From Rhizophlyctis rosea (taxonomy: Eukaryota > Chytridiomycota > Chytridiomycetes > Rhizophlyctidales > Rhizophlyctidaceae): a stretch of DNA of 64,000 bases. The stretch covers positions 354-64,353 of the forward strand of contig JADGJC010000198.1 of the NCBI GenBank assembly GCA_027596075.1, in the 5' to 3' direction. The notes beneath the pieces are model-generated. The model had not been told where the DNA came from, did not search any database, and saw nothing but the letters and a program-made list of their open reading frames with translations. The position numbers and the translations under genes were made by a program. Positions 7,753-59,954 of this stretch are shown here, one piece after another. Numbering within the stretch: position 1 is the first letter of the stretch; each line of letters begins with the position of its first letter.

Positions 7753-8313
7753 CGCTGTTACGAATAATCTCAACCAACTGCGGGAAAGTTCCAGCTTAGG
7801 AATACAGAAACTGCTGCTGAAAAAGTGGGGCAGGGATGGATCTCTGAAACGAGTTCAAAAGGACTCCGTCTCAAAAATGACATCCGAAATCCCCCAGAAG
7901 GACCCTGGAAAATACCGATCAGACATTGACAGGAGGCCCGATGAATGAATTGTGGCACGGCTCATGTGGCTTGAGCAGCGCCACCAACCCCAAATGTCCA
8001 TCTTGCGTGGGCCACATCAAACGAAAGCATCCTTCGAACACGTCCGAGACACACTCACAAACCCTTTATCTAAGAAAGACCCCCCAACCAAAGTATGATT
8101 AATACACCTATATGTCACATGGTATATGCTATACACCCTTCGCTCCCCTCCCCACAAGTCGCTCCCCCCAGCTACGAACGGTCAAATCGTTATACATACT
8201 GACTGTCGTGTCAGAAAACAAACCCTATTCTAATCAATACCATAAATCTGCTGCTATGCTTCTAACGTGCGCCCGAATCAAGGAATACAGCATCTACACT
8301 AACCCGCATTACT
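7753..8313. other. Intergenic region
   Basis: Upstream flank of calaxin and 3' flank of the C2H2 gene. Nothing recognisable apart from short unsupported ORFs. Confidence 0.5.
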
Positions 8314-35820: not shown

Positions 35821-38616
35821 ATGCCTACAGATCCCCTCTATGGCCACAGCGGCCGACCGTCAAAGACTGTCCGAGTGACTGTCACGCACGGATCGCAAAA
35901 GGTTGAAATAACGCTCAACGTGTCTTTGTCTGTGGCTACTATCGTTAAAAACCTCTGCAATGTCCACTTCAACTTGGGAGGACAACCGAGCAGTTACTGC
36001 TTACGCATAGTTGAAACTGAGGAGCTTGTTACCGACGAGGTATGCTTCATATTGATGAGATCAAAGAGGAGTTTATCTGACTCGCTCAAACCAGAAACTG
36101 CGACGGAAACTCAAGGATGGCGACAACTTGAAGCTCGTGTCGTCACCAGCTATCATGGTGGAAGAGACTATGAAGAGTCTACCCTCGGAAGACGATATTG
36201 TTGTGAAGCGGACCATCTTCATGTTGCAAAAGTATCTGAAGGTCTGTTCACATGGAAATCTTAGATTGCGACGCACCTATAATGACGGACATCTGCAGGA
36301 AGAAGATTTCGCTGATGAGTTTATCGCCAAAGGAGGGCTGGGAATGCTTCAGGACATCATCATTACGGGCACGGGAAACACACTGGCATACGCTTTGACT
36401 TCACTACAAGCTCTGATGGAACATGACAATGGGTGGGACAATTTTAGGCCACCGTTCATCAGCACGGTAAATATAAACAAACTGCGCGGCACTCTGCAAT
36501 TGTCTCTTGACCCCGTTCATCTCCAGCTTGTATCAATCATCGTCAAACAAAATCTCGTCAACATCTGCCGTCCCGCCACTGCCATCATCATCAAACTAGT
36601 CGTCGCCGACAAATCCTCTTCCTCTCCCATCCAATGCTACGGCTTTGACGTCGTAAACCGCGCAATACGGAATCAAGCATCCTTTTTACCAACACTAGTC
36701 CATCGCTTAGCAGCCACCGATTATCTGTTACAACTTAATTCCATGCACCTTATCAACACACTCTTTCGACACGCGACGGAGAGCGCAAGAACAGAATTTT
36801 TCCAAATGTTAGATGCACTAGATACCCGACGGACGGTTCTGAGAGTAATGCAGAGTAGCCCGGCAGAAGAATTGTCGAATCAGTTGGTGGAGTTTCAGCG
36901 ATTGCTTATTCAGGAGGGACATCGGCGGAAGCGGATGCCGGTTGACTTGAAGAATCCGGAACATGAACGGATGCTTAATGAGTTGTATCAGCTTTCTGGG
37001 GTGGAGTCAGATGCTGGAGGGAAGTGGAAGAGGCTCGGATTTGATGTGAGTTGAGCTCGTTTGCGGTTTCTTCAACATCGAACGTTGCTCATTGCCCATC
37101 AGTCAGAGTCTCCACGGCGTGACCTTTCGCGGGTGGGACTGCTTGGGTTGCAGACGATACATGCATTTGTGACCAAAAATCCCGAATTCTTTGAACATGT
37201 ATGTGGTGGTGACGCGCGTGCGATGTCCTGAAATTGACCGATTTGATGAAACAGGAGATTGCGGAGCAACATAAGAAGCCACCAGATAGACGGTGTCCGT
37301 TTGCACGAGCCTGCGTGGAGGTGTGCGAAGTAATGGCTGACCATTGGGAAGTCAGCACTGGATGTAAGCGAATCATTTTTGCTTACCCACCCGTTTCGCT
37401 CCTGAACTCAAGGCTCTCAATAGACTCAACCTCGACAACACACCAACCCCTCCTCCTGGTCTTCGAAGACGTTTTCTCCATCACACTAAACACCTTCTTC
37501 CGATTATGGGACGAAATGGGCGCACACGCCACCAACGAGGACATCACACGCGTCGCGAATGTTTTGCAATCTCAGTTCAAACATGCGGCGGTCCGCGGGC
37601 CCCCGACAGACGTGAAGGATTTGTCGACGTTTGAGAGGGATATGATGGAGACGCCGTATTCGTTGATTAGGGAGAGGCAGTTGAAGCATTTGGAGGTTGA
37701 GGATGATTTGATGACTAGGTTGCCTATACGGTGAGTCGTGGATTGCATGTCTATCTTTCTGTCATACAACGGTGCCGCATTCCTAATCAACGACTCCGTA
37801 CATGATGTAGAGACCTCCGCGAACAAATCAACAAAGAGAGCTACGAGTTTGTCAAGAAACAACGGATCAGCTGTCTTGCTGCGGGCGGGTGGTTCCCTGT
37901 TTTTAGGGAAAAGGGACGAGTGAAAGGGTTGATGAGGTTTTATCGGTTAGGACCGAACTTGAAGTCGTTGCATTATGGAGATTTCCAGGAAGGGACGAAT
38001 CGGAAGCCGTTGTTGGAGGAACTTAATGAGAAGAGTGAGTATTTGGGAGGGGTTTTGTGTATTTTTGAGCTCCCTCTTCATGACGCTCATTCCTTCCATC
38101 TTTACCCACCACTCGCAAACCAATCCCCCAGTCGACCTAACAACAACAACCGACATCCTAACCGGCGCCTCCTCCCCCCTCTTCCTCTCCAAAAAAAATG
38201 CTTCCGAAAACCCCTCCCTAATATTCTCTCTCGTCTCCTCCTCCACCACCGACTCCTCTTCCTCCACCTCCCTAGCAGATTTCGCCTGTCCAAACGAAAC
38301 GGCATTTTCCGAATGGACAGACGGCTTCAACATGTTGCTTGGACGGGGCATAGGGAACAAAGACACGGCCGAGTTTGTGAGGGAGTTGACGGATGTGGGA
38401 GTTAAATTGAGTTTGAGTGATATTACGGGGGAGGGGGTTGATTTGTTTGTGGGGGAGGTTCCGAGGGTTGCGGGTGGGTTTTGGTTTGATGATGGGAGTG
38501 GGGCGGGGGTGGGGGTTGGTGGGGGGAGTTGGGGAGGGGAGTGGGAGGAGGGGGAGGAGGAGGGGGAGGAGGAGGTGGAGGTTTTGAGTGTTGTTGAGGG
38601 GTATGGGGGTCGGTAG
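35821..38616 (+). CDS. ELMO: ELMO/CED-12-like protein
   Basis: Adaptor of the ELMO family, which partners DOCK-type exchange factors to activate Rac and remodel actin. ATG at 35821 (MPTDPLYGHSGRPSKTVRV). About ten exons. The N-terminus has a ubiquitin-like Ras-binding region (VRVTVTHGSQKVEITL). An armadillo-like helical region follows (FADEFIAKGGLGMLQDII, about 36320; ALTSLQALMEHDNGWD). The ELMO domain spans LNELYQLSGVESDAGGKWK (about 36990), GLLGLQTIHAFVTKNPEFF (about 37150), RCPFARACVEVCEVMADHW. A helical linker then leads to a PH-like domain (GGWFPVFREKGRVKGLMRF, about 37890, and TDGFNMLLGRG near 38330). The C-terminus is Gly/Glu-rich. The final exon changes from C-rich to very G-rich codons. 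No DOCK gene is in the window. Confidence 0.9.
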
Positions 38617-48366: not shown

Positions 48367-49939
48367 ATGAGCGACCGCTACATCCCCAACCCCTGGCTCA
48401 ACGACCCCCTCCCCACAACACCCCCAGCAGCCCTCTCAATACCCGAACGCGCCCAACTTGAAGCCGCCATAGCCCACTGCGCCTCTCAGATACTGCGAAA
48501 CAATACTGATGAGTCCGGAGACATCTACGTCGGGCTATCGGGCCTCGCATACATGTATTGGAAGCTTGCAGACGGAGGCACTGACCCACCTCTGGGCGTG
48601 GGGTCAGAGAAGACGCGTTGCGAGGATGTTGCGAAGGCTTTGGTGAGGAGAGCTTTACAGGGTGTGGGAAGGGAGAAGCATGTTGGGTTCATTTGTACTG
48701 ACGCAGGTGGGTATGTCAATGATCTGCATCTGTCCTTTCCCCTGGCATGAACATCAACAGCTCTCGGCGTATTCAGGAACTTTGGCCTTGGGAGCAGTCT
48801 TGTTGCCTGAACGGAAAGCTGAATGTCTGGCACAACTGAAATCGCTCAGTCAACGTGCCCTCTCATCTTCAGAATGGAGTGAAGTCCTATACGGTCGTGC
48901 AGGTGGGTCACTGGTCGTCTGCGCCACCACGTGCACCCCACAAATTACTCACCTTCCCACCAAGGCTTCCTCTACACAATCTCCTTCCTCACAACCCACC
49001 TCCCACCGAACGTCAACCCACTCGCCCAACAATCTCTCCCAATCGCACAATCCATTCTCCGCTCCTCCGCCTCGTCAAATCCACCCTACGTCTGGTCATG
49101 GCACGACAAACAGTACTTGGGCGCCGCACATGGCACCCTGGGTATTCTTACCATGCTCTTGCATGTCATTGATGACTTGGATGAGTCTGAGCGGGGAGGT
49201 GTGCGTGCGACGTTGGATTGGGTTGCAGATCAGGTGCTGGAGTTGGAGGGTGGGTGGCCGAGTTCGGTGGAGAGTGAGAGTGGAGGGGAGAGGTTGGTAC
49301 AATGGTAAGAACGTAGTTGAGCGGTATGGTCTTCATCGCGGTTGATTACGAGACCGGTACTTACCGTCCACAAGGTGCCATGGTCCGCCAGGAGTTGTCA
49401 TCTGTATGAGTAAGGCGTTTGAGGTTCTGGGAGACGCAAAGTACATCGAGGCGGCCAAGGCGGCGGCGGAGGTTGTGTGGAAGAAAGGTAAGGTAGTTTG
49501 TATTGAAATGCAGGGGATCGTGCACAAACTCTGTTATCCGTGGCTCTCTACATTGACCACTTTGCATTGATACAGGCCTTCTCCGGAAAGGGATTGGTCT
49601 ATGCCACGGAATCAGGTAAAGCAACGTCGTGTTCAGTTTTACTAATCGACCAAAAAGCCTTCCATCTCAATCACTCCACACCAAATCAGCGGCAACGCCT
49701 ACGCCTTCCTGCACCTCCACGCAGCCACCAACGACCCCCTCCATTGGCATCGGGCCATCCGCTTTGCTTTCTTCATGCTGGACTGGGAACAAGCAACGGA
49801 AAGGGGCGACTTGAGCATTCCCGACCGGCCGTGGTCGTTGTTTGAAGGTGCGGGTGGGGCGGTGATGTTCTGGAGGGATGTGGTGAGGGTTGCGGATGGG
49901 AAGGGGTTGGAGGGGTTTCCGTGTTTTGCGGATGTGTAG
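48367..49939 (+). CDS. LANCL: LanC-like protein (LANCL)
   Basis: Zinc protein of the lanthionine-synthetase C-like family. Eukaryotic LANCLs couple glutathione to dehydroamino acids in damaged proteins. ATG at 48367 (MSDRYIPNPWLND). The double alpha-barrel Gly motifs appear in order: DIYVGLSGLAYMYWKLA (about 48525), VLYGRAG (about 48885), YLGAAHGTLGILTMLLH (about 49115-49165). The zinc site is complete: WCHGPPGVVICM (about 49375, split by an intron) and GLCHG-ISGNAYAFL (about 49595 and 49690, also split). The C-terminus has DRPWSLFEGAGGAVMFW and ends FADV with TAG at 49937-49939. Length about 400 residues fits the family. Several introns interrupt exactly these glycine loops. Confidence 0.93.
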
Positions 49940-50265: not shown

Positions 50266-52751
50266 TCAAACCTCACCAAACTCCTCCAAAACCCTCCCCA
50301 GCGCCTCAGGATCCTCCTCAAACCTCCTCAACCCACCCCTCAAAACCTCACCCACAATCCCAAACCCAGCCATTTGCGTCGGCCACAACGCAATCGCCTC
50401 ATCCGCCCTATCCAACACAAACTCTAAACACCTCGCACGTGCAGCCGCGTGGAGGAACGTGTCGTCGTTCAAGAGCGACGCTACATCCTCCGAGTTTTGA
50501 GCTGCCATGAGGTGCGTGAGGGTTTTACGGATTGTGCGGGGGNNNNNNNNNNGGTCGCAATCCGGGTGCCGCGGGGCGGGGGGGCCGGGGGGTTGGTTGG
50601 GGGGGGGGATTTGTGGGGGGGGCTGGTCACGGGCGTTGGCGGGGGGGGGGGGGTCGGTTGGGGTATGAGGTGAGGAAGTTGGTTGCGAGGGTGGAGTGGG
50701 TGCGGGTTTTGTGGAGCGGGGTGGGGAGGTAGAGGGTTGTGATGAGGAACCAGAATGTTGGGGTTGTGGTGTAGTTTATAGGTGTGAAGAGGGTTGATGT
50801 GGGGAGGAAGAGGGTGAGGGAGGATATGAGGCGGAGGTAGAGGGCTGGGGGAGTGCGGAGGGGGGAGGTGTAAGAGTAGTTCTGTATGAGGGTTGAGAAG
50901 TTGAAGGTCATTAATGTCAATGAGAGTTGCGGGTTTCTTATCTATTGAGAAGGGAAAACAAACCTTGTAAATTTCATCCAGAACTTCCACATCCGAGTTG
51001 AGGACGTCAATGAGTTCTGCTTCGGTTAGGCCGTCCGGAGCGCAGACGGCGAGGTAGGAAAGCGCATGAGATACCAACACGCGGCCATACGATTTTTCGA
51101 GCTTCAAAAGTTGCTGTTGCAGGAGATCCTCCACAGTGGGAGGCAAAACGGTTTGGTTCGGTGGTGTGTACTACCGTCATTCGATAGAAGTCAGGATCTC
51201 ATGTGATCAGGAAGCTTCCAGTATGGACACATCAAACTTACCGCATTCCACAACCTCGCAACGCCCCACGCAACTTTTGCATAATACGCCGTCCCATTCT
51301 GCTTACAAGCTTCCACCAACACCTTCTCCTGATGTTGAGTCAAATTCCTCATATCCCCACCCCTCAACCTCTCCAAAACCTCCTCAACACCACCCTCCCT
51401 CTCCAATTCCACCTCACTCTCCCCCTCACCCTCCTCATCACCACCCAACTGCCCACTCTCATACCTCTTCAAAAGCCCCTCCGCAACAACCCGACAAACC
51501 CCATCACAAAATTCTCGAATGTAGTCCGCTTGAACGGGTTGTTCGAGCGGGTTGAACCCCACGCCTCGAATCCAGGGGACTTGGAGCGTGGATGTGGGCG
51601 TGAGCCGGTGACGGAGCGATTTGTATCGTTCTACGGCGTCGACGTCAAGTCGGGCGCCAACCATGTCACAATACTCGCGCGCTAAATCCGGGTGTTGGTC
51701 AACGTCCACTTCGATTTTGTTGGTGAAGTCGCGACTGGGAATGAAGGAGGGAGTGAGATGTTAAGCTTATGGTGAAACCTCAGACAATCCATCATTGCAA
51801 AACTTACACAAACACCATCCCCTTCTTCTCCGCACCACTCACAACATCAACAACATCCTCAACCCCCGCCCTCAAATACTTCTCCCTCCCCTCCTCGCCC
51901 AACACCACTGACCCCTCAACCAAAAGCCTCCGCAACCTCCCCTCAACACTCCCCCACTCCTCCCTCGCCATCCGCGCCTCCTTCCCCTCTCCACTCCGGT
52001 AATCAGGTAACACCACATCAACACCCTGCAAAGCATAGGACGCCGGTCTCATGTTCATATCAAGCCTATACCACTCTTGCAAAAGCTGTAGATCCCCCGC
52101 GCGTTCAGCGTTGTTGCTTGTACCGAGGCGTTGGAAGATTCTGTTAAACTCGGATTTCTCGATAATGGTGGGGAGGGGCCGGTGGGAGAGTTTGTTGCCC
52201 ATAATGACGATGGAAGTTGTGGTCGTCGAGGTAGATTTTAGGGTGGAGAGAATAAGAGGATGTAAGGTGTGGTCTTCATTTGCGGATGTGGAGTCGCGGA
52301 GACCTGAGGAGAGGTCTAGTGGGAGGAAGTCGTATCCTAGTGTACGGCAGAATTGTTTGAGGTAGGGGTATACGTCAACAGCGAGGGCGTTGCGTTCCCA
52401 TTCTGTGTCTGGGCCGGTGGAGGTTATGAGAAGTTTTATAGTTTTGTTGATGGTGGTGGTGGTGGGTGGGTGGGTGACAGCTGCAGTACTGGCACGTGCG
52501 AGGAGTTGAGCGAATTCCGGGCGTTCTGCGCGGGGGTGGGGGCCAAAGTCCGTGAAGAGTTTTGGACCGGTGTATGGTTGGACGGCGGTATCAGTTTCTT
52601 CAGACAGAGGGGTGAAGACAGGTGTGAGTGTTGGAGGTCCTGGACGGTGGGGTTTTCCAGCCAGAAAGGTGGTGTTGATCTTGAGAGGTTGGCCTACTGG
52701 AGGGGAGCATGTGGAGAAAGGCCTGTCAATACACGTTGCGATGCATCGCAA
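50266..52751 (-). CDS. NWD1-like protein without visible NACHT P-loop
   Basis: Resembles the N-terminal and winged-helix parts of NWD1/TEP1-type STAND proteins. The first usable codon at 52751 is not ATG, so the start is unresolved. Segments: WERNALAVDVYPYLKQFCRT (about 52400) and VIMGNKLSHRPLPTIIEKSE (about 52200), the DUF4062-like pattern; then VFVRDFTNKIEVDV after an intron, VPWIRGVGFNPLEQPV, LTQHQEKVLVEACKQNG (about 51330). The next exon has LPPTVEDLLQQQLLKLEKS and HALSYLAVCAPDGLTEAEL (about 51140-51010), the post-NACHT winged-helix signature. No G-x4-GK[ST] is seen between these parts. The 3' part crosses a 10-N gap (50543-50552) in G-rich DNA and ends MAAQNSEDVASL...EEFGEV at 50266, with no WD repeats. 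Function unknown. Confidence 0.65.
50543..50552. other. Assembly gap (10 N)
   Basis: Ten N bases flanked by long G runs on the plus strand (50541-50660). The gap lies inside the NWD1-like gene. Confidence 0.99.
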
Positions 52752-52956: not shown

Positions 52957-55900
52957 TCACAACCCCTCCGGCGCCACGGGATATGCATTAACCTGCTCAT
53001 ACCAACCTTCACGGAACGTCACTCCCTTCTTCCCCTCAACCTTCCTCAAACTGCTCTTACTCCCCTTCTCCTGCTTGTTCTCCCCACCCAAACTCTGCAC
53101 CAAATGGAAATCCGCAACAGTCTGATTCAACTGTCTCTCCCTCAACTCCAAAAGCTCCACCAGCTCCCCGTAAGTGTATAACCCCTTAGTGGTGATCTGG
53201 TTGGAAGCCATGAGGTGGAAGTCTGCGATGGTTTGGTTTAGTTGTTGTTCCCTTAATGAGAGGAGGGAGAGGAGTTCGGTGTAGGTGTAAGGGCCGACGC
53301 GTTCAGTGGAGTGGTCGAGAGTGGCCTGAGTTGGGAGATGGAGAGACGGAGGTCGTTAGCAACGGATTGGGCTTCGGATTGGAGGAGGGAGAGGAGAGCG
53401 GTGGTTTCATGGGAGGCTCCACCCAGGTGGAGATCCTTCAATGTGGAGAGAATTGAACGGAATTCATGGGCACACACCTGAGCCTCATTGCGGAAATGTT
53501 CGGCGAGGGCCTTGAATTGGTCGCGTTCGCGTTCAACGGTGGTAGCATCGGTAGATGTGATGTCCCGGATGGTGGAGCTTCCGTTTGCAATCTATAGGGG
53601 CGCCACTGTATAAGCGAAGAGCCTTTGGACGGCGTAATAATGTAACAACACGCACCTGCTGCAAAGCCTTCGTCTCATACCCAAAGTTCTCCGCAAGATC
53701 CTTATAAGACTGCAAAGCCCTAACCTCATAACCCAAATTCTCCGCAAGCGCCCTGTACGACTTCAACGCACGCGCCTCAGCCGCAAAGTGCTCCGCCAAA
53801 GCCTTGTGCTGCTCCAAAGCATGCACCTCCTTGCCAAAGTGTTCCGCAAGAGTCTTGTATTGATCACGTTCCCGCGTGATAGACTTCAAGTCAACAGATT
53901 CTTGAAGTGCGGCGGCCTCGTGACGGAAGTGTTCGGCAAGAGCTTGGTATTGGTGGTATTCTCGTTGAATTCCGGAGAGGTCGTCGGTGGAGATGGTGCG
54001 TTCGATGGGGGCGATGGAACGGTCGGTGGAGGTGCCAGATTCGTATTTGTGGATCAGGGTGCGGAAGTACTCCCGGTGTTGGCTGATACGTTGAATGGTC
54101 TCGGCGTCCAGGGATTTTTCGTCCTCGAGCTTGGCAATGACGCGGCGGAAGTATTCGCGGTGTTGAGAAATCCTGGTGATGGTGTCGGCTTGGCTGACCA
54201 ATTGAGCCTCAAGCTGCAGACGGAAATCATAAGTATCCATCCCCCAACGTTGCTCCAATAAAAACTCAACCAACCTTCTCATTATCACGACGGAGGTAAT
54301 CACGGTGTTGCTCGACCATCTCCAAGGTCTGCTTGTAGCTCGGGAGCGCAACATCGACAAATTGCGAAGCCTCAAGCTTCTCTAGGGTACGGCGCAAGTA
54401 GCCGATGTGCTGGGAAACACGTTGGTTGGTGGCCGCATTATTGACGTTCTCAAGTTCCGCCTAAATGGAAATCGTAAGTATAAGGTATCAAAACTTTGGA
54501 TGAGCACCAGATTGCAACTCCTACCTTCTCGACAGCCTTACGAAGGTACGCATTATGGTGACTCAACCTATCAATGGTCTCTGCCTGACTGTTGATGACA
54601 TCCTCAAGCTATATCACAGAGTCCAAAATCAATAAAACATTCACCGCCAACACGCTACGCCAAGAACAAACACACCTTGCCATTGTCAGCCCTAAGGTAA
54701 TCCCTGTGCTGTCCAACCATTTCCAAAGTCTTGACATGGCTAGAAAGACCCGCAAGTTCCGGCGACGCGTCCACCTTATGCAGGGTGTTACGGAGATAAG
54801 CAATGTGCTGAGTGATACGCTTGTTCGTCTCGGCGTTGTTGATGTTCTCGACTTCGGCACGTTCGCAGGCCTTGCGGAGGTAGGCGTTGTGGCTGGAGAG
54901 ACGGTCGATGGTGGCGGAGAGGTTCTTGATCGTGTCCTCGAGCTGAGGAAAAGTTGTTAGCCTCATGGTGCACCGATCACGACAGCAAACAAGACGGCAC
55001 CGACATACCCTCTCATTGTCCCTCCTCAAGTAGTCCTTGTGCTGTTCAACCATCTCAACCGTCCTCACATGAGTCGAAAGTCCGTCAACCTTGGCATTCT
55101 CGCGGCGGAGATAAGCAATGTGCTGAGAGACACGCTTGTTCGTCTCGGCGTTGTTGATGTTCTCGACTTCGGCACGTTCGCAGGCTTTGCGGAGGTAGTC
55201 ACGGTGGCGACTGACACGGTCGAGTTGTTCGGAAAGGTCCTTGATTTTGTCCTCAAGCTGTGGACAGAAAGACCGGGTTTCTTGAATAAGAAGCGCGCGC
55301 TGCAAAGTTGAAAGTCGACAAAACTTCTTACCCTAGCGTTATCAGCACGCAAGTAATCCCTGTGCTCGCCAACCATCTCAAGGCTCCGGACATGAGTATG
55401 CAACCCATCAACCTTCTCCCCTTGTTGACGCAAGTACGCAATGTGCTGCGAAATCCTCATATTCGTCTCCGCCAAGTTGATGTTCTCAACCTCAGCCTTC
55501 TCACACGATTTGCGAAGATAATCCCGGTGGCGCGTAACACGTTCCAATTCACCCGACAAAGTCTTGATAGTCTCCTCAAGCCTTTCATTATCAGCACGGA
55601 GGTAATCCTTGTGCTGTTCGACCATCTCCACGGTGCGGACGTTGGTGGAGCGACCGTTGGCGTTCTCGGCTTGACGACGGAGGTAGCTGATGTGCTGGCT
55701 AACACGCTTGTTGGTTTCCGCAAGGTTTATGTTGTCGACTTCGGCCTTTTCGACGGCTTTACGGAGGTAGGAGTTGTGGTGACTTAAACGGTCAATGACT
55801 TCCGCTTGGCCCTTGATGACATCTTCGAGCTTTTGGTTGTCATTGCGGAGGTAGTCCTTGTGCTGCTCAACCATTTCCACGGTGCGGGTGTGAGAGGAAA

Positions 55901-58900
55901 GACCCACGTTGGGGGTGGATTCCACTTGTTGCAAGGTACGGCGGAGGTAGTTGATGTGTTGGTTGATACGCTTGTTGGTTTCGGCAAGGTTGATGTTTTC
56001 GACCTCGGCTTTCTCGACGGCCTTGCGGAGGTAGGAGTTGTGGTGCGTCAAACGGTCAACCACTTCGGATTGGTATTTAAGGGCATCCTCGAGCTGGTGA
56101 AGGGACATCGTTAAGAATGATGAAAACTGCGATGTGAACAGCATTTTTACACGTACCCTGCCGTTATCAGCCCTCAAATAGTCCCGGTGGTCGCCGACCA
56201 TCTCCAAGGTCTTGACGTGGCTCGAAAGGCTGACACCAACGAATTGGGTAGCCTCGAGCTTCTCGTTGGCACGGCGAAGGTACGAACGGTGTTGTTCAAT
56301 GCGCTTGTTCTCCTCGGCATTGTAGACGTTTTGCAATTCGGCCTACAATTATTTGACATGTTAAGACGCTTACAAAGAGAATGCTAACGAAAGAACGTCA
56401 CAAATTTCTTACCTTCTCAACAGCCTTCCTCAAATAATCGCGGTGGCGAGAAACACGGTCAATGATTTCCGCCTGGCTTTTGACAAAATCTTCAAGCTAA
56501 AAACCACACCACGCTCAGTCAGTACACAATCACTCCTCACATCCTCACATCACCAAAAACTCACCTTCTCATTGTTCCTCCTCAAGTAATCACGGTGCTG
56601 TTCAACCATCTCCAACGTCTGCTTGTAGCTAGACAGCCCCACTTGCGAGTCAGCTTCCACCTTCGCCAAGGTGCGACGGAGGTAGCTGATATGTTGCGTA
56701 ACACGCTTGTTGGTCTCGGCATTGTTCACATTGTCCAACTCAGCCTTCTCGACTGCGCGGCGGAGGTAGGAGTTGTGGGCGGAGAGACGGTCGATGGTGA
56801 AGGCTTGGGATTTGAGGGTTTCTTCGAGCTGATGTGAGAAGCAACAGCAGATGTCAGTAAAAGTGAGACTCTGAAGCCAGCTCAATTGATTACTCACCCT
56901 CTGGATTTCAGCCCTCAAATAATCGCGATGTTGTCCAACCATCTCCAAACTTTTTACGTGACTAGACAAGTTCCCATGCACATACTGCGTAGCCTCATAC
57001 CCCTCAACAGTCCTCCTCAAATACTCACGATGCTCCTCAACCCTCTTCGCAACCGCAGCCCGCTCAACAATCTCCCACTCAGTCTTATCATGCGCCTTCC
57101 GAAGGTACGCATTATGCTGCCCAAGACGTGTAACCTCTCCCTTCAATTCAGCGTTCTCGTACTCCAACTTGCCAATAGCACGACGGAAGTACTCGCGGTG
57201 CTGGGAGACGCGCTTGAAGTCTTCGGCCTTGACGAGGTCGGCGGCGTCACGGATGTCGTGTTGCTTGGCGAGGTAGTCGCGGTGGTGGGTGATGCGTTCG
57301 AGTTGGTGGTAGACGTCTGATTCGGGGAGGGTGGCGATGGCGCGGGTGGTGGCAATGTAGACGGGGAGGACGGCCAGGACGGCCGGGACGGCAGGAGCGG
57401 CGTAGACGGGCAGGGACCTCTCCTTGTCAGCAGCAGGAGCCGGGGCTTGAGCAGCACCCAATCCCGCAACGATCTTCGCCTCCAAGTCGTTGTTGACACG
57501 GCGGAGGTATTCACGGTGTTGGCTGATACGGTGCTTGTCAGCAGCGAGACCGACTTCGCGCCACTCGGCCTTGTCCAGAGCTTTGCGGAGGTAGTCACGG
57601 TGGTCAGTGACACGGTTGCATTCAGTGATCTTGTCCAACAACTGGTTCTCGAGCCTCTCAATGCATCCACGGAGGTAGTCACGGTGCTGTTCAACACATT
57701 CAATGGGAAGCGGGTGGGACCGGACGTAGGCGATTTGGATACCGTCCAAAGAGTTGTACCGACGGAGGTAAGCGTTGTGCTGGTTCAAACGAAGAATCGT
57801 CTCGGCATCCACTTCCTTCTCATGTTCAAGCTTGTGGATCAACCGACGGAAGTATTCACGGTGTTGAGAAATACGTTGGATAGTCTCGGCTTGCTGGACT
57901 TGTTCGAACTCCATCTTATGGATCAAACGACGGAAGTATTCGCGGTGCTGGCTGACACGGGTGAGAGTTTCGGCGTGTTGAACATGGTCATGTTCCAACT
58001 TGTGGACCAAGCGGCGGAAGTATTCGCGGTGTTGGGAGATACGTTGGATGGTTTCCTTGTCTTGGAGTTTCTCGTGCTCGAGTTGGGCGATGCAGCGGCG
58101 GAAATATTCGCGGTGTTGGCTGATACGGTTGATGGTCTCGGCGTCGGCACTCTTCTCCGCTTCGAGCTTTTCGATGTACTTCTTCAAGTAGTCGCGGTGG
58201 AAGGTCACACGTTCCAAATCAGCCTCAACGTCGGATGAGGTGGAAACGCTGGATTCGCGGCGCGGGAGTGGGGTGGACGGAGGAGACGGGAAGAAGTCAC
58301 GAGTGGCAGATGCGGGAGTGATTGGCGGGGTTGCAAGGCTGGATGCAGCGGCAGCGGAAGCGGCGGCGATGGCGAATTGCGCGGCGGTGGGCTTGCCTTC
58401 AAAGACGGGCCGAGCTTCGTAGATAGAAGAAGCATCGCTGATGGCACGGCTACGTTCGACGACCTTGGGGGTAGCAACTTCAACGCGGAGAGCAGTGATG
58501 CGTTCTTGCTCAGAGCGGTTGATGTGCTCGCGCAAGTAGTTCCTGTGGTCCTCGAGGCGCACAACGTGGTGGTGAAGAGAGAAGTTCTCCCATTCGGCCT
58601 TCTCGTTGTGCTTGCGAAGGTAGTCACGGTGGTCGCTAAGACGTTGCACAGTTTGGTAAAGGTCGGTGTTGATGTACTCTTGCTTGTCAGCATACTTCCG
58701 GAGGTAGTTGTTGTGGGCGGTAAGACGGACGATTTCAGCGCAGAGTTGAGGAACGTAAGAAAGTTCCAACTGTTGGCTGTTCTTCAAGAGGTAATCGCGG
58801 TGGGTGGCAATTCGGTTCAATGAGGCATAGATGGATGGAATGGTAGTGAATTCGAGCTTGTGGCTGTAGTCGGCAAGGTAGTCGCGGTGCTTGGTCACAC

Positions 58901-59954
58901 GGTTGAATTCGGCATAGATGGCGGGGATGGTCTCGTTTTCCAGTTTGTGGCATTCCTTGTGGAGGTAGTCTCGGTGGGCGGTGATACGGTTCAACTTGGC
59001 GCAAAGTTCGGGGATGGTTTTGTTTTCAACCTGGTTCCAAGATGATTAGTCAGCTACATACAACGTAGGGAAATACCAAAGGACAACGTACCTTATCAAG
59101 GGTGTTGCGGAGATAGTCACGGTGGACTGTCACGCGCTCCAACTCTTCAGAAAGGTCAGCATTGCCAACTGGCGCAGCAACGACGTGGGGGCCAGCAGTT
59201 TGAGTCCTCTTCAAAGCCTGAGATATAGAAGGATGTTGAAGTTAGCATGAGGCAGAAATAAATATTCTCTGACTCCTGAGAATGCAATTTTCAGACAACT
59301 TACATTCAATTCATCGGTGACGGCACGGAGCTTGAACTCAGCCTCCTTCCTAGCAGTCAACTGAATGTCCCGATCGCGCTGACTTTGGTAAAGCAACTCC
59401 CTCAAATCAGCGATCTGCCTGGCCTTCTCGACGGCATCCACATCAGCGTTGTTGCTCTCTGCATTCTCCTTGTATATAGCCCTCTCATTGACCAAAACAG
59501 CAACGGTCTTGGCCAGCTCAGCCTCAACACGCTCCAAGTTGTCCTGCAACTCAGACTCGCCGGCCTTCAAACGGGTAATTTCGGCAAGTTGGGCCTTCCT
59601 TTCTTGCTCATGTTCGGTCTGGGTCTTCTCCAACTTCTCTTGCAGAGAGGTGATTTGGTTGATGAGCTGGTCGTGGGTCTTTTGCGCAAGGGGGATCTCT
59701 TCAACAGAGGGGATATCGGTGGCGGGGGAAACGGAACGGGTGCTGCTGCTGCTTCCAGCCTGTTCTTGCACTGGACTGTCCACCTGGGGGATGAGGTCGT
59801 CGTTCGAAATGACATTGTGGAGGGGGGTAGGTGTTTTGGGGGAGCTCAGCGAGGCAGCTGAGCGGTTATCGTGGTGTGTGGAGATAGTGGTCCGGCTCTC
59901 TTTGGCATGCTTGTTGCTGCCAAAGGATGGCCGACGTGGAAACCACTTGAACAT
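52957..59954 (-). CDS. Giant coiled-coil protein of about 47 H-x-x-Y-[LF] modules
   Basis: Unrecognised multi-exon gene. ATG at 59954-59952 (MFKWFPRRPSFGSNKH), stop at 52957. The N-terminus is basic, then Ser/Pro-rich, then a plain heptad coiled coil (LINQITSLQEKLEKTQ, about 59680). From about 59130 a module recurs: hydrophobic-R-[IV]-[ST]-x-H-[RN]-[DES]-Y-[LF]-[RK]-[RK], once per 28 or 29 residues (four heptads, with or without one skip residue). About 21 such modules lie between 59130 and 56890, including a run of HREYFRR copies, interrupted by an Ala/Ser/Pro spacer (58450-58230). From 56830 to 54290 eight three-module super-repeats follow (HNxYLRKA, HIxYLRRT, H[RK]DYLRAD), each 83-88 residues. 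Two more HREYFR modules, four to six 17-residue LAEHF repeats (53950-53660) and a duplicated tail motif (YTYxELxxLL, QLNQTxADFHL) close it. Probably a long structural filament or scaffold; purely inferred. Confidence 0.82.
54290..56830 (-). repeat. Eight tandem 83-88 residue super-repeats
   Basis: Each unit is about 250-265 coding bases: HNxYLRKAxEKAExEN, then NxAETNKRxxQHIxYLRR, then a variable linker with SSHVxTxEMV, then QHxDYLRxDNxKLED. Several units are split by short introns before QLED or after VEK, at equivalent places. Confidence 0.85.

What the first reader, a model, noticed from the sequence alone, without database searches (positions are those of the whole stretch)
52957..59954. 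Giant protein built from about 47 four-heptad H-x-x-Y modules
An H-[RN]-[DE]-Y-[LF]-[RK] signature recurs every 28 or 29 residues over about 6 kb. The mixture of 28 (exact four heptads) and 29 (plus a skip residue) recalls the segmented rod of SF-assemblin, the striated flagellar root protein, though no sequence homology is claimed. The window also carries two flagellar genes, so a cytoskeletal filament or kinetosome-associated scaffold is a testable idea. I know of no named family with this module.
Basis: partly seen in the sequence, partly recalled or inferred. Interest (0 to 1): 0.9.

Follow-up and report, generated by a model that had tools for sequence, protein, structure and literature searches.

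The report
Chytrid giant repeat coiled-coil rod protein
This is a fungal gene for a very long, probably rod-shaped structural protein built from dozens of copies of one 28-residue unit; our searches found a relative in only one other fungus, and what it does in the cell is unknown.

Summary
On the minus strand, window 59954 to 52957 fits one spliced gene of 14 exons and about 2,010 residues, with exactly 47 H-x-x-Y-[LF] modules. Of 46 spacings, 30 are 28 residues, 4 are 29 and 12 differ. All 12 module matches found in its 44 Mb genome lie in this gene.

One relative was found, inside a 2,893-residue Rhizophlyctis rosea record annotated as Ku80. It has a similar start, the same order of parts, and two further repeat types near the C-terminus (17-mer, 35-mer). 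Apolar residues peak at 3.48-3.52 residues in the 28-mer stretches of both species. AlphaFold gives long helices at low to moderate confidence, broken by disordered linkers. Module copies show purifying selection (pooled pN 0.28, pS 0.71), and all ten introns cutting the module region sit at one module position, phase 0.

Best reading: a lineage-restricted, segmented coiled-coil scaffold that grew by phase-0 exon duplication. No Pfam family reaches its cut-off, and SF-assemblin, myosin tail and rootletin are not listed. The SF-assemblin likeness is periodicity only; a kinetosome role has no support here.

The parts
52957..59954 (-). whole gene, 14 exons in a hand-built model; ATG at 59954, TGA ending at 52957; about 2,010 aa, 233.5 kDa, pI 7.0
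   Evidence: start agrees with R. rosea M[FL]KW..R..SFGSNKHA
59304..59954 (-). exon 1: head (basic, Trp-containing N-terminus, Ser/Pro-rich stretch, then a stretch without H-x-x-Y)
59092..59217 (-). exon 2: linker and module 1 as far as H+10
56898..59030 (-). exon 3 (711 aa): rest of module 1 to H+10 of module 21, with the 29-residue modules (Pro at H+17), a disordered linker with S/TP and RRxS motifs, 28-residue modules and further linkers
56565..56828 (-). exon 4, modules
56413..56496 (-). exon 5: 84 nt, exactly one 28-codon module length
56157..56342 (-). exon 6, modules
55332..56093 (-). exon 7, modules in three-module units
55009..55257 (-). exon 8, modules
54676..54942 (-). exon 9, modules
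54525..54608 (-). exon 10: 84 nt, exactly one 28-codon module length
54275..54460 (-). exon 11, modules
53656..54213 (-). exon 12: last two H-x-x-Y modules, then five 17-mer-type elements (LAexFgxExxAL)
53478..53591 (-). exon 13: one further partial LAEHF element
53326..53477 (-). 152-nt stretch: intron in the model, but its frame is open and resembles a coding stretch of R. rosea; boundary unresolved
52957..53325 (-). exon 14: two copies of the C-terminal repeat YTYxELxxLLxLREqQLNQTxADFH and the C-terminus

Best explanation
Each 28-residue module is four heptads. With L/I/V at H-6, R/N/I at H+1 and N/I/V at H+8 as 'a', and V/I/L at H-3, L/F at H+4 and L/A at H+11 as 'd', the constant His is at 'g' and the constant Tyr at 'c', on the outside of the coil; the fourth heptad is irregular (register inferred). 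Polar a-site residues suggest a parallel in-register dimer (inferred). Runs of modules make long helices (75 to 184 residues in the exon 3 model); Gly/Pro/Ser-containing breaks and disordered linkers act as hinges (inferred). The repeated outside stripe of His, Tyr and Arg, once per about 4.2 nm (28 residues at the recalled rise of 0.15 nm), would be the lateral or partner-binding face, so the protein would serve as a long spacer or filament-forming scaffold, held by the conserved head and by the C-terminal 17-mer and 35-mer repeats. The rod lengthened in this lineage, most simply by duplication of phase-0 module exons. Shown: gene structure, repeats, apolar period, conservation in one relative, constraint. 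Inferred: dimer, hinges, binding face, cellular role.
For: Gene model with 13 phase-0 introns and 47 modules. Collinear protein in R. rosea. Apolar peak at 3.48-3.52 in all seven 28-mer stretches examined, three of the window and four of R. rosea. Long predicted helices with disordered linkers (mean pLDDT 57 and 73). pN 0.28 against pS 0.71 pooled over 36 pairs of nine units; 24 of 36 pairs give dN/dS 0.09-0.65 and 12 are saturated. All 10 introns that cut the module region lie at the same module position, after H+10. 32 of 47 window modules are closer to another window module than to any R. rosea module, 13 are closer to an R. rosea module, 2 tie.
Against: AlphaFold confidence is low in exon 3 (no residue at pLDDT 90 or more) and only monomers with two-sequence alignments were modelled, so dimerisation is untested. 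With all modules pooled into one column profile the heptad harmonic is modest (P 0.02 window, 0.08 R. rosea by column permutation); the stretch-wise peaks had no shuffle control and one is weak (power 4.0). A charge-coded half-module stagger that would favour myosin-like filament assembly is no better than chance. Intron insertion at one preferred site is not excluded. No expression or localisation data.
Confidence: 0.65

Rival explanations
1. A striated-root or kinetosome-associated filament of the zoospore that works like SF-assemblin.
For: 29-residue modules near the N-terminus with apolar period 3.59-3.61; SF-assemblin rods have consecutive 29-residue motifs of four heptads plus a skip residue (PMC8435291, passages seen). 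R. rosea has flagellated zoospores (recalled).
Against: Only 4 of 46 spacings are 29; those modules carry Pro; no Pfam SF-assemblin match; at 233.5 kDa it is far larger than SF-assemblin, called a 34-kD protein in a reference title shown. No flagellar neighbour among 30 scanned ORFs. The genome holds a weak rootletin-like stretch elsewhere (31.1 bits, below cut-off 36), so another root candidate may exist.
Confidence: 0.12
2. A long helical tether (golgin-like, septal or other membrane tether) whose basic, aromatic N-terminus binds membrane and whose C-terminal repeats bind a partner.
For: Conserved N-terminus M[FL]KW..R..SFGSNKHA and conserved linker with S/TP and RRxS motifs; breaks at every third module could let rods fold back.
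Against: No membrane or golgin domain in Pfam; the membrane-binding reading of the N-terminus is a guess from composition.
Confidence: 0.18
3. A microtubule-lattice-following protein: 28 residues of helix span about 4.2 nm, near the tubulin monomer spacing (recalled, about 4 nm), so each H-x-x-Y module could meet one tubulin monomer.
For: Frequent 28-residue pitch with an outside stripe of His, Tyr and Arg; pitch arithmetic only.
Against: 28 residues is simply four heptads; other spacings at every third module spoil a strict lattice match; the protein is near neutral (pI 7.0). No direct test.
Confidence: 0.05

Closest known systems
Residues 874-2893 of the Rhizophlyctis rosea record P0001 (annotated 'X-ray repair cross-complementing protein 5')
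   Same: Similar head and the same order of 29-mers, linker, 28-mers, 17-mers and 35-mers; 834 of 1,453 aligned residues identical.
   Different: 36 H-x-x-[YC] modules against 47; eight 17-mer elements against five; seven 35-mer elements against two. Its record is joined to a Ku80-type part; in the window's genome the two Ku matches lie on other contigs, so the join looks like a fused gene model.
SF-assemblin (PF06705)
   Same: Rod with four-heptad motifs; 29-residue motifs with a skip residue (PMC8435291 passages).
   Different: No sequence match; most spacings here are 28; much longer; H-x-x-Y signature; extra repeat types.
Myosin II rod / paramyosin (recalled)
   Same: 28-residue repeat of four heptads with occasional extra residues.
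   Different: No Pfam myosin tail match; no charge-coded stagger beyond chance.
Rootletin (PF15035)
   Same: Long coiled coil (recalled).
   Different: Not among the Pfam families of this protein; a separate weak rootletin-like stretch exists elsewhere in the genome.

Membership tests
Family of the R. rosea protein | Collinear head, H-x-x-Y modules, 17-mers and 35-mers | tested here: met
SF-assemblin | Match to the PF06705 profile | tested here: not met
   not among the nine families with E up to 1
SF-assemblin | Consecutive 29-residue motifs through the rod | tested here: not met
   4 of 46 spacings are 29
SF-assemblin | Assembles into 2-nm protofilaments with striation | not testable with these tools
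   needs protein
SF-assemblin | A genuine PF06705 gene elsewhere in the genome (would make a second one less needed) | tested here: inconclusive
   none found, but no control genome rang
Myosin rod | Match to a myosin tail profile | tested here: not met
   none listed
Myosin rod | Charge zones favouring a half-module stagger beyond chance | tested here: not met
   window best stagger 13, P 0.26 for position and 0.44 for score; R. rosea best stagger 12, P 0.51 for score
Rootletin | Match to PF15035 | tested here: not met
   not listed
Segmented coiled coil (general kind) | Apolar period near 3.5 and long helices with breaks | tested here: met
   pooled heptad harmonic P 0.02 window, 0.08 R. rosea; oligomer state not tested

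The most novel reading that the evidence does not exclude
The founding pair of a chytrid-only family of cytoskeletal filament or ruler proteins, in which an outside His-Tyr-Arg stripe repeated every four heptads makes a periodic binding lattice, and whose rod length is tuned between species by duplication of phase-0 module exons.
Probability: 0.3. Interest if true: 0.65.

Novelty: new variant of a known kind. Interest (0 to 1): 0.42.

Why it matters
Large structural proteins restricted to a few chytrids could underlie zoospore or thallus architecture that differs between chytrid orders, which is known mainly from electron microscopy (recalled). This gene gives a candidate that can be tagged and localised, and a clear case of a rod that appears to have lengthened by exon duplication. 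The public record of the relative also carries a misleading DNA-repair name.

Tried and rejected
Charge-coded filament stagger: in the 28-mer stretch 528-688 and in R. rosea 623-820 the raw scan put most of the best staggers near 14 + 28n residues, though not in the three-module region; column permutation showed that random module charge layouts do as well (window P 0.26 for position, 0.44 for score; R. rosea best stagger 12, P 0.51 for score), so it was dropped. Viral or prokaryotic origin: no confirmed relative in IMG/VR (158 pattern matches, none confirmed) or in GTDB contigs (86, none confirmed); each scan used only two peptide patterns from exon 3. Solved structures: one match at E 0.99, taken as chance. 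Search with exon 3 alone for medium-length relatives: none (candidates capped at 8,000). Another member in the same genome: 12 of 12 module matches (query of 158 residues) and 2 of 2 matches of the C-terminal repeats fall in this gene; that tool gives lower bounds. Fold search was not run: both models are long single helices, for which matches would mean little. The nine Pfam lines (best Trans_reg_C E 0.00022 and Csd6 E 0.00035; also a Sas-6 coiled coil at E 0.055) are all below their curated cut-offs and were taken as chance coiled-coil matches.

The C-terminal splice is unresolved: the best donor-acceptor pair removes 152 nt, yet that stretch reads VCAHEFRSILSTLKDLHLGGA... against VCAKEVRSVLTVLKDLHLGGA... 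in R. rosea, so it is probably coding in some form.

Full report
What is there. The window lies in an unnamed 44.1 Mb, 634-contig eukaryotic genome (89 kinesin-domain matches). I joined 14 exons by hand at GT-AG sites; all 13 introns are phase 0, twelve are 61-86 nt and the last is 152 nt. The protein has 2,010 residues, 233.5 kDa, pI 7.0. It holds 47 H..Y[LF] sites; 1,000 shuffles of the same residues give a mean of 0.7 and at most 5. Of 46 spacings, 30 are 28 residues, 4 are 29, and 12 differ.

Anatomy. Head (about 240 residues: basic Trp-containing N-terminus, Ser/Pro-rich stretch, then a stretch without the motif); seven modules, the first four followed by a spacing of 29 and with Pro at H+17; a linker with S/TP and RRxS motifs conserved with R. 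rosea; modules 8-13 spaced by 28; further modules and linkers; then, from residue 960, nine units that start with an EMV-type module (eight unit spacings of 83-90 residues), each preceded by a break holding Gly, Pro or Ser. After the last module come five LAexFgxExxAL elements, the last four 17 residues apart, and two elements of the type YTYxELxxLLxLREqQLNQTxADFH.

Relatives. A search of about 5.8 billion proteins gave one hit, a 2,893-residue Rhizophlyctis rosea record named as XRCC5/Ku80; a search with a two-sequence profile gave the same single hit, and exon 3 alone gave none. In all three searches only about 8,000 candidates were scored, the cap, so weak relatives can be missed, and no positive control for other chytrids was run. 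From residue 874 that record is collinear with the window protein; 834 of 1,453 aligned residues are identical in a MAFFT alignment, which is partly arbitrary in the repeats. It has 36 H-x-x-[YC] modules (35 spacings: 22 of 28, 7 of 29, 6 other), eight 17-mer elements and seven 35-mer elements. The Ku part does not seem to belong: the two Ku matches in the window's genome are on other contigs. All 12 module matches and both C-terminal-repeat matches in the own genome fall in this one gene (lower bounds). No confirmed relatives in viral or prokaryotic contigs, each scanned with two peptide patterns; one PDB match at E 0.99; no Pfam family over its cut-off, nine below it.

Evidence that it is a translated, constrained protein. 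Pooled over 36 pairs of the nine units (79 codons each), pN is 0.28 and pS 0.71; 24 of 36 pairs give dN/dS of 0.09-0.65 and 12 are saturated at synonymous sites. Over all 47 modules pN is 0.48 and pS 0.69. There is no transcript evidence.

How it grew. The ten introns that cut the module region are all phase 0 and all fall after H+10. Two exons are 84 nt, one module length. By ungapped module scores, 13 of 47 window modules are closest to an R. rosea module (the first eight among them), 2 tie, and 32 are closest to another window module. So the N-terminal part is old and largely one-to-one, and the three-module region expanded in this lineage: nine EMV-type unit starts in the window, two of the LEMV/LDMV type in R. 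rosea by reading. Exon duplication is the simplest mechanism; insertion of introns at one preferred site is not excluded, and R. rosea exon borders were not available.

Structure. Apolar residues peak at 3.50 residues in the stretch 528-688 of the window, 3.48 and 3.49 in its two other 28-mer stretches, 3.50 in three and 3.52 in the fourth R. rosea 28-mer stretch, and 3.59 to 3.61 in the 29-mer stretches (scanned from 3.2 to 4.2, no shuffle control). Pooled over all modules the heptad harmonic is P 0.02 (window) and 0.08 (R. rosea) against column permutation, a modest result; the fourth heptad is irregular. AlphaFold on exon 3 (711 aa, 2 sequences) gave helices 2-185, 267-348, 356-430, 444-525 and 570-682 and three shorter ones, with disordered linkers, mean pLDDT 57, pTM 0.20; on exon 12 (186 aa), helices 2-59, 76-106 and 109-185, mean pLDDT 73, pTM 0.28. 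In the inferred register the His and Tyr are at g and c, outside the core; position a of the second heptad is Arg, Asn, Ile or Lys. Dimer state is inferred, not shown.

What did not hold. The charge pattern first looked myosin-like in two 28-mer stretches, with most of the best staggers near odd multiples of 14 residues, though not in the three-module region; random column orders do as well (window P 0.26 for position and 0.44 for score; R. rosea's best stagger is 12, score P 0.51). The SF-assemblin parallel rests on periodicity alone: its 29-residue motif with a skip residue is as described in a review (PMC8435291, passages), but here 29 is the minority and those modules have Pro. PF06705 was not found elsewhere in the genome, but the control did not ring, so this says nothing. 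A weak rootletin-like stretch lies on another contig. In 30 other ORFs scanned, a part of the window's ORFs, I saw casein kinase II beta, ELMO, PB1, CBS, EF-hand, Myb, LanC-like, PH and an NWD1-like domain over their cut-offs and CorA below it, and nothing specifically flagellar.

Literature. The strings HRDYLR, QHRDYL and SQHREYF occur in no paper of the held library. Five further searches were judged from listed titles and abstract starts only, and none named this protein: Rhizophlyctis rosea with genome and zoospore (11 of 11 papers listed); at least two of SF-assemblin, chytrid, coiled-coil (20 of 78); at least two of Rhizophlyctis, kinetosome, zoospore ultrastructure (14 of 14); at least three of 28-residue repeat, coiled-coil, charge, stagger (10 of 240); Chytridiomycota, coiled-coil, repeat protein, novel (2 of 2). 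A term count in a 2026 survey of fungal flagellar proteins found no Rhizophlyctis, rootlet or assemblin in its main text (PMC13358043), and in a chytrid development atlas no kinetosome or rootlet (PMC8887899). Most subscription journals are not held.

Verdict. A conserved, constrained and, as far as searched, lineage-restricted segmented coiled-coil protein with an unusual module. The kind (coiled-coil rod) is known; the family and module appear undescribed in what I could search. Function at the cell level is open; a structural scaffold is most likely.

Noticed in passing
R. rosea protein P0001, residues 1-873 against 874-2893: The public record joins a Ku80-type part to the giant rod protein and names the whole after Ku80, probably a fused gene model; in the window's genome the Ku matches lie on other contigs.
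   Followed up: partly
53326-53477 (minus strand): Stretch that looks like an intron by its splice sites but reads as protein conserved with R. rosea; possibly alternative splicing, an unseen short intron or a one-base assembly discrepancy.
   Followed up: partly
G000 contig C6:54246-54581 (+), locus L025: Weak rootletin-like (PF15035) stretch, 31.1 bits, below the family cut-off of 36, in a 413-residue open frame.
   Followed up: no
50481-51170 (minus strand): Frame downstream on the same strand with an NWD1-like winged-helix domain (PF25469), which hints at a NACHT-type protein; a short run of N lies inside it.
   Followed up: no
48883-49305 (plus strand): LanC-like domain stretch (PF05147).
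   Followed up: no
36059-38402 (plus strand): ELMO protein in pieces: ELMO_ARM, ELMO_CED12 and PH_12 domains in successive frames.
   Followed up: no
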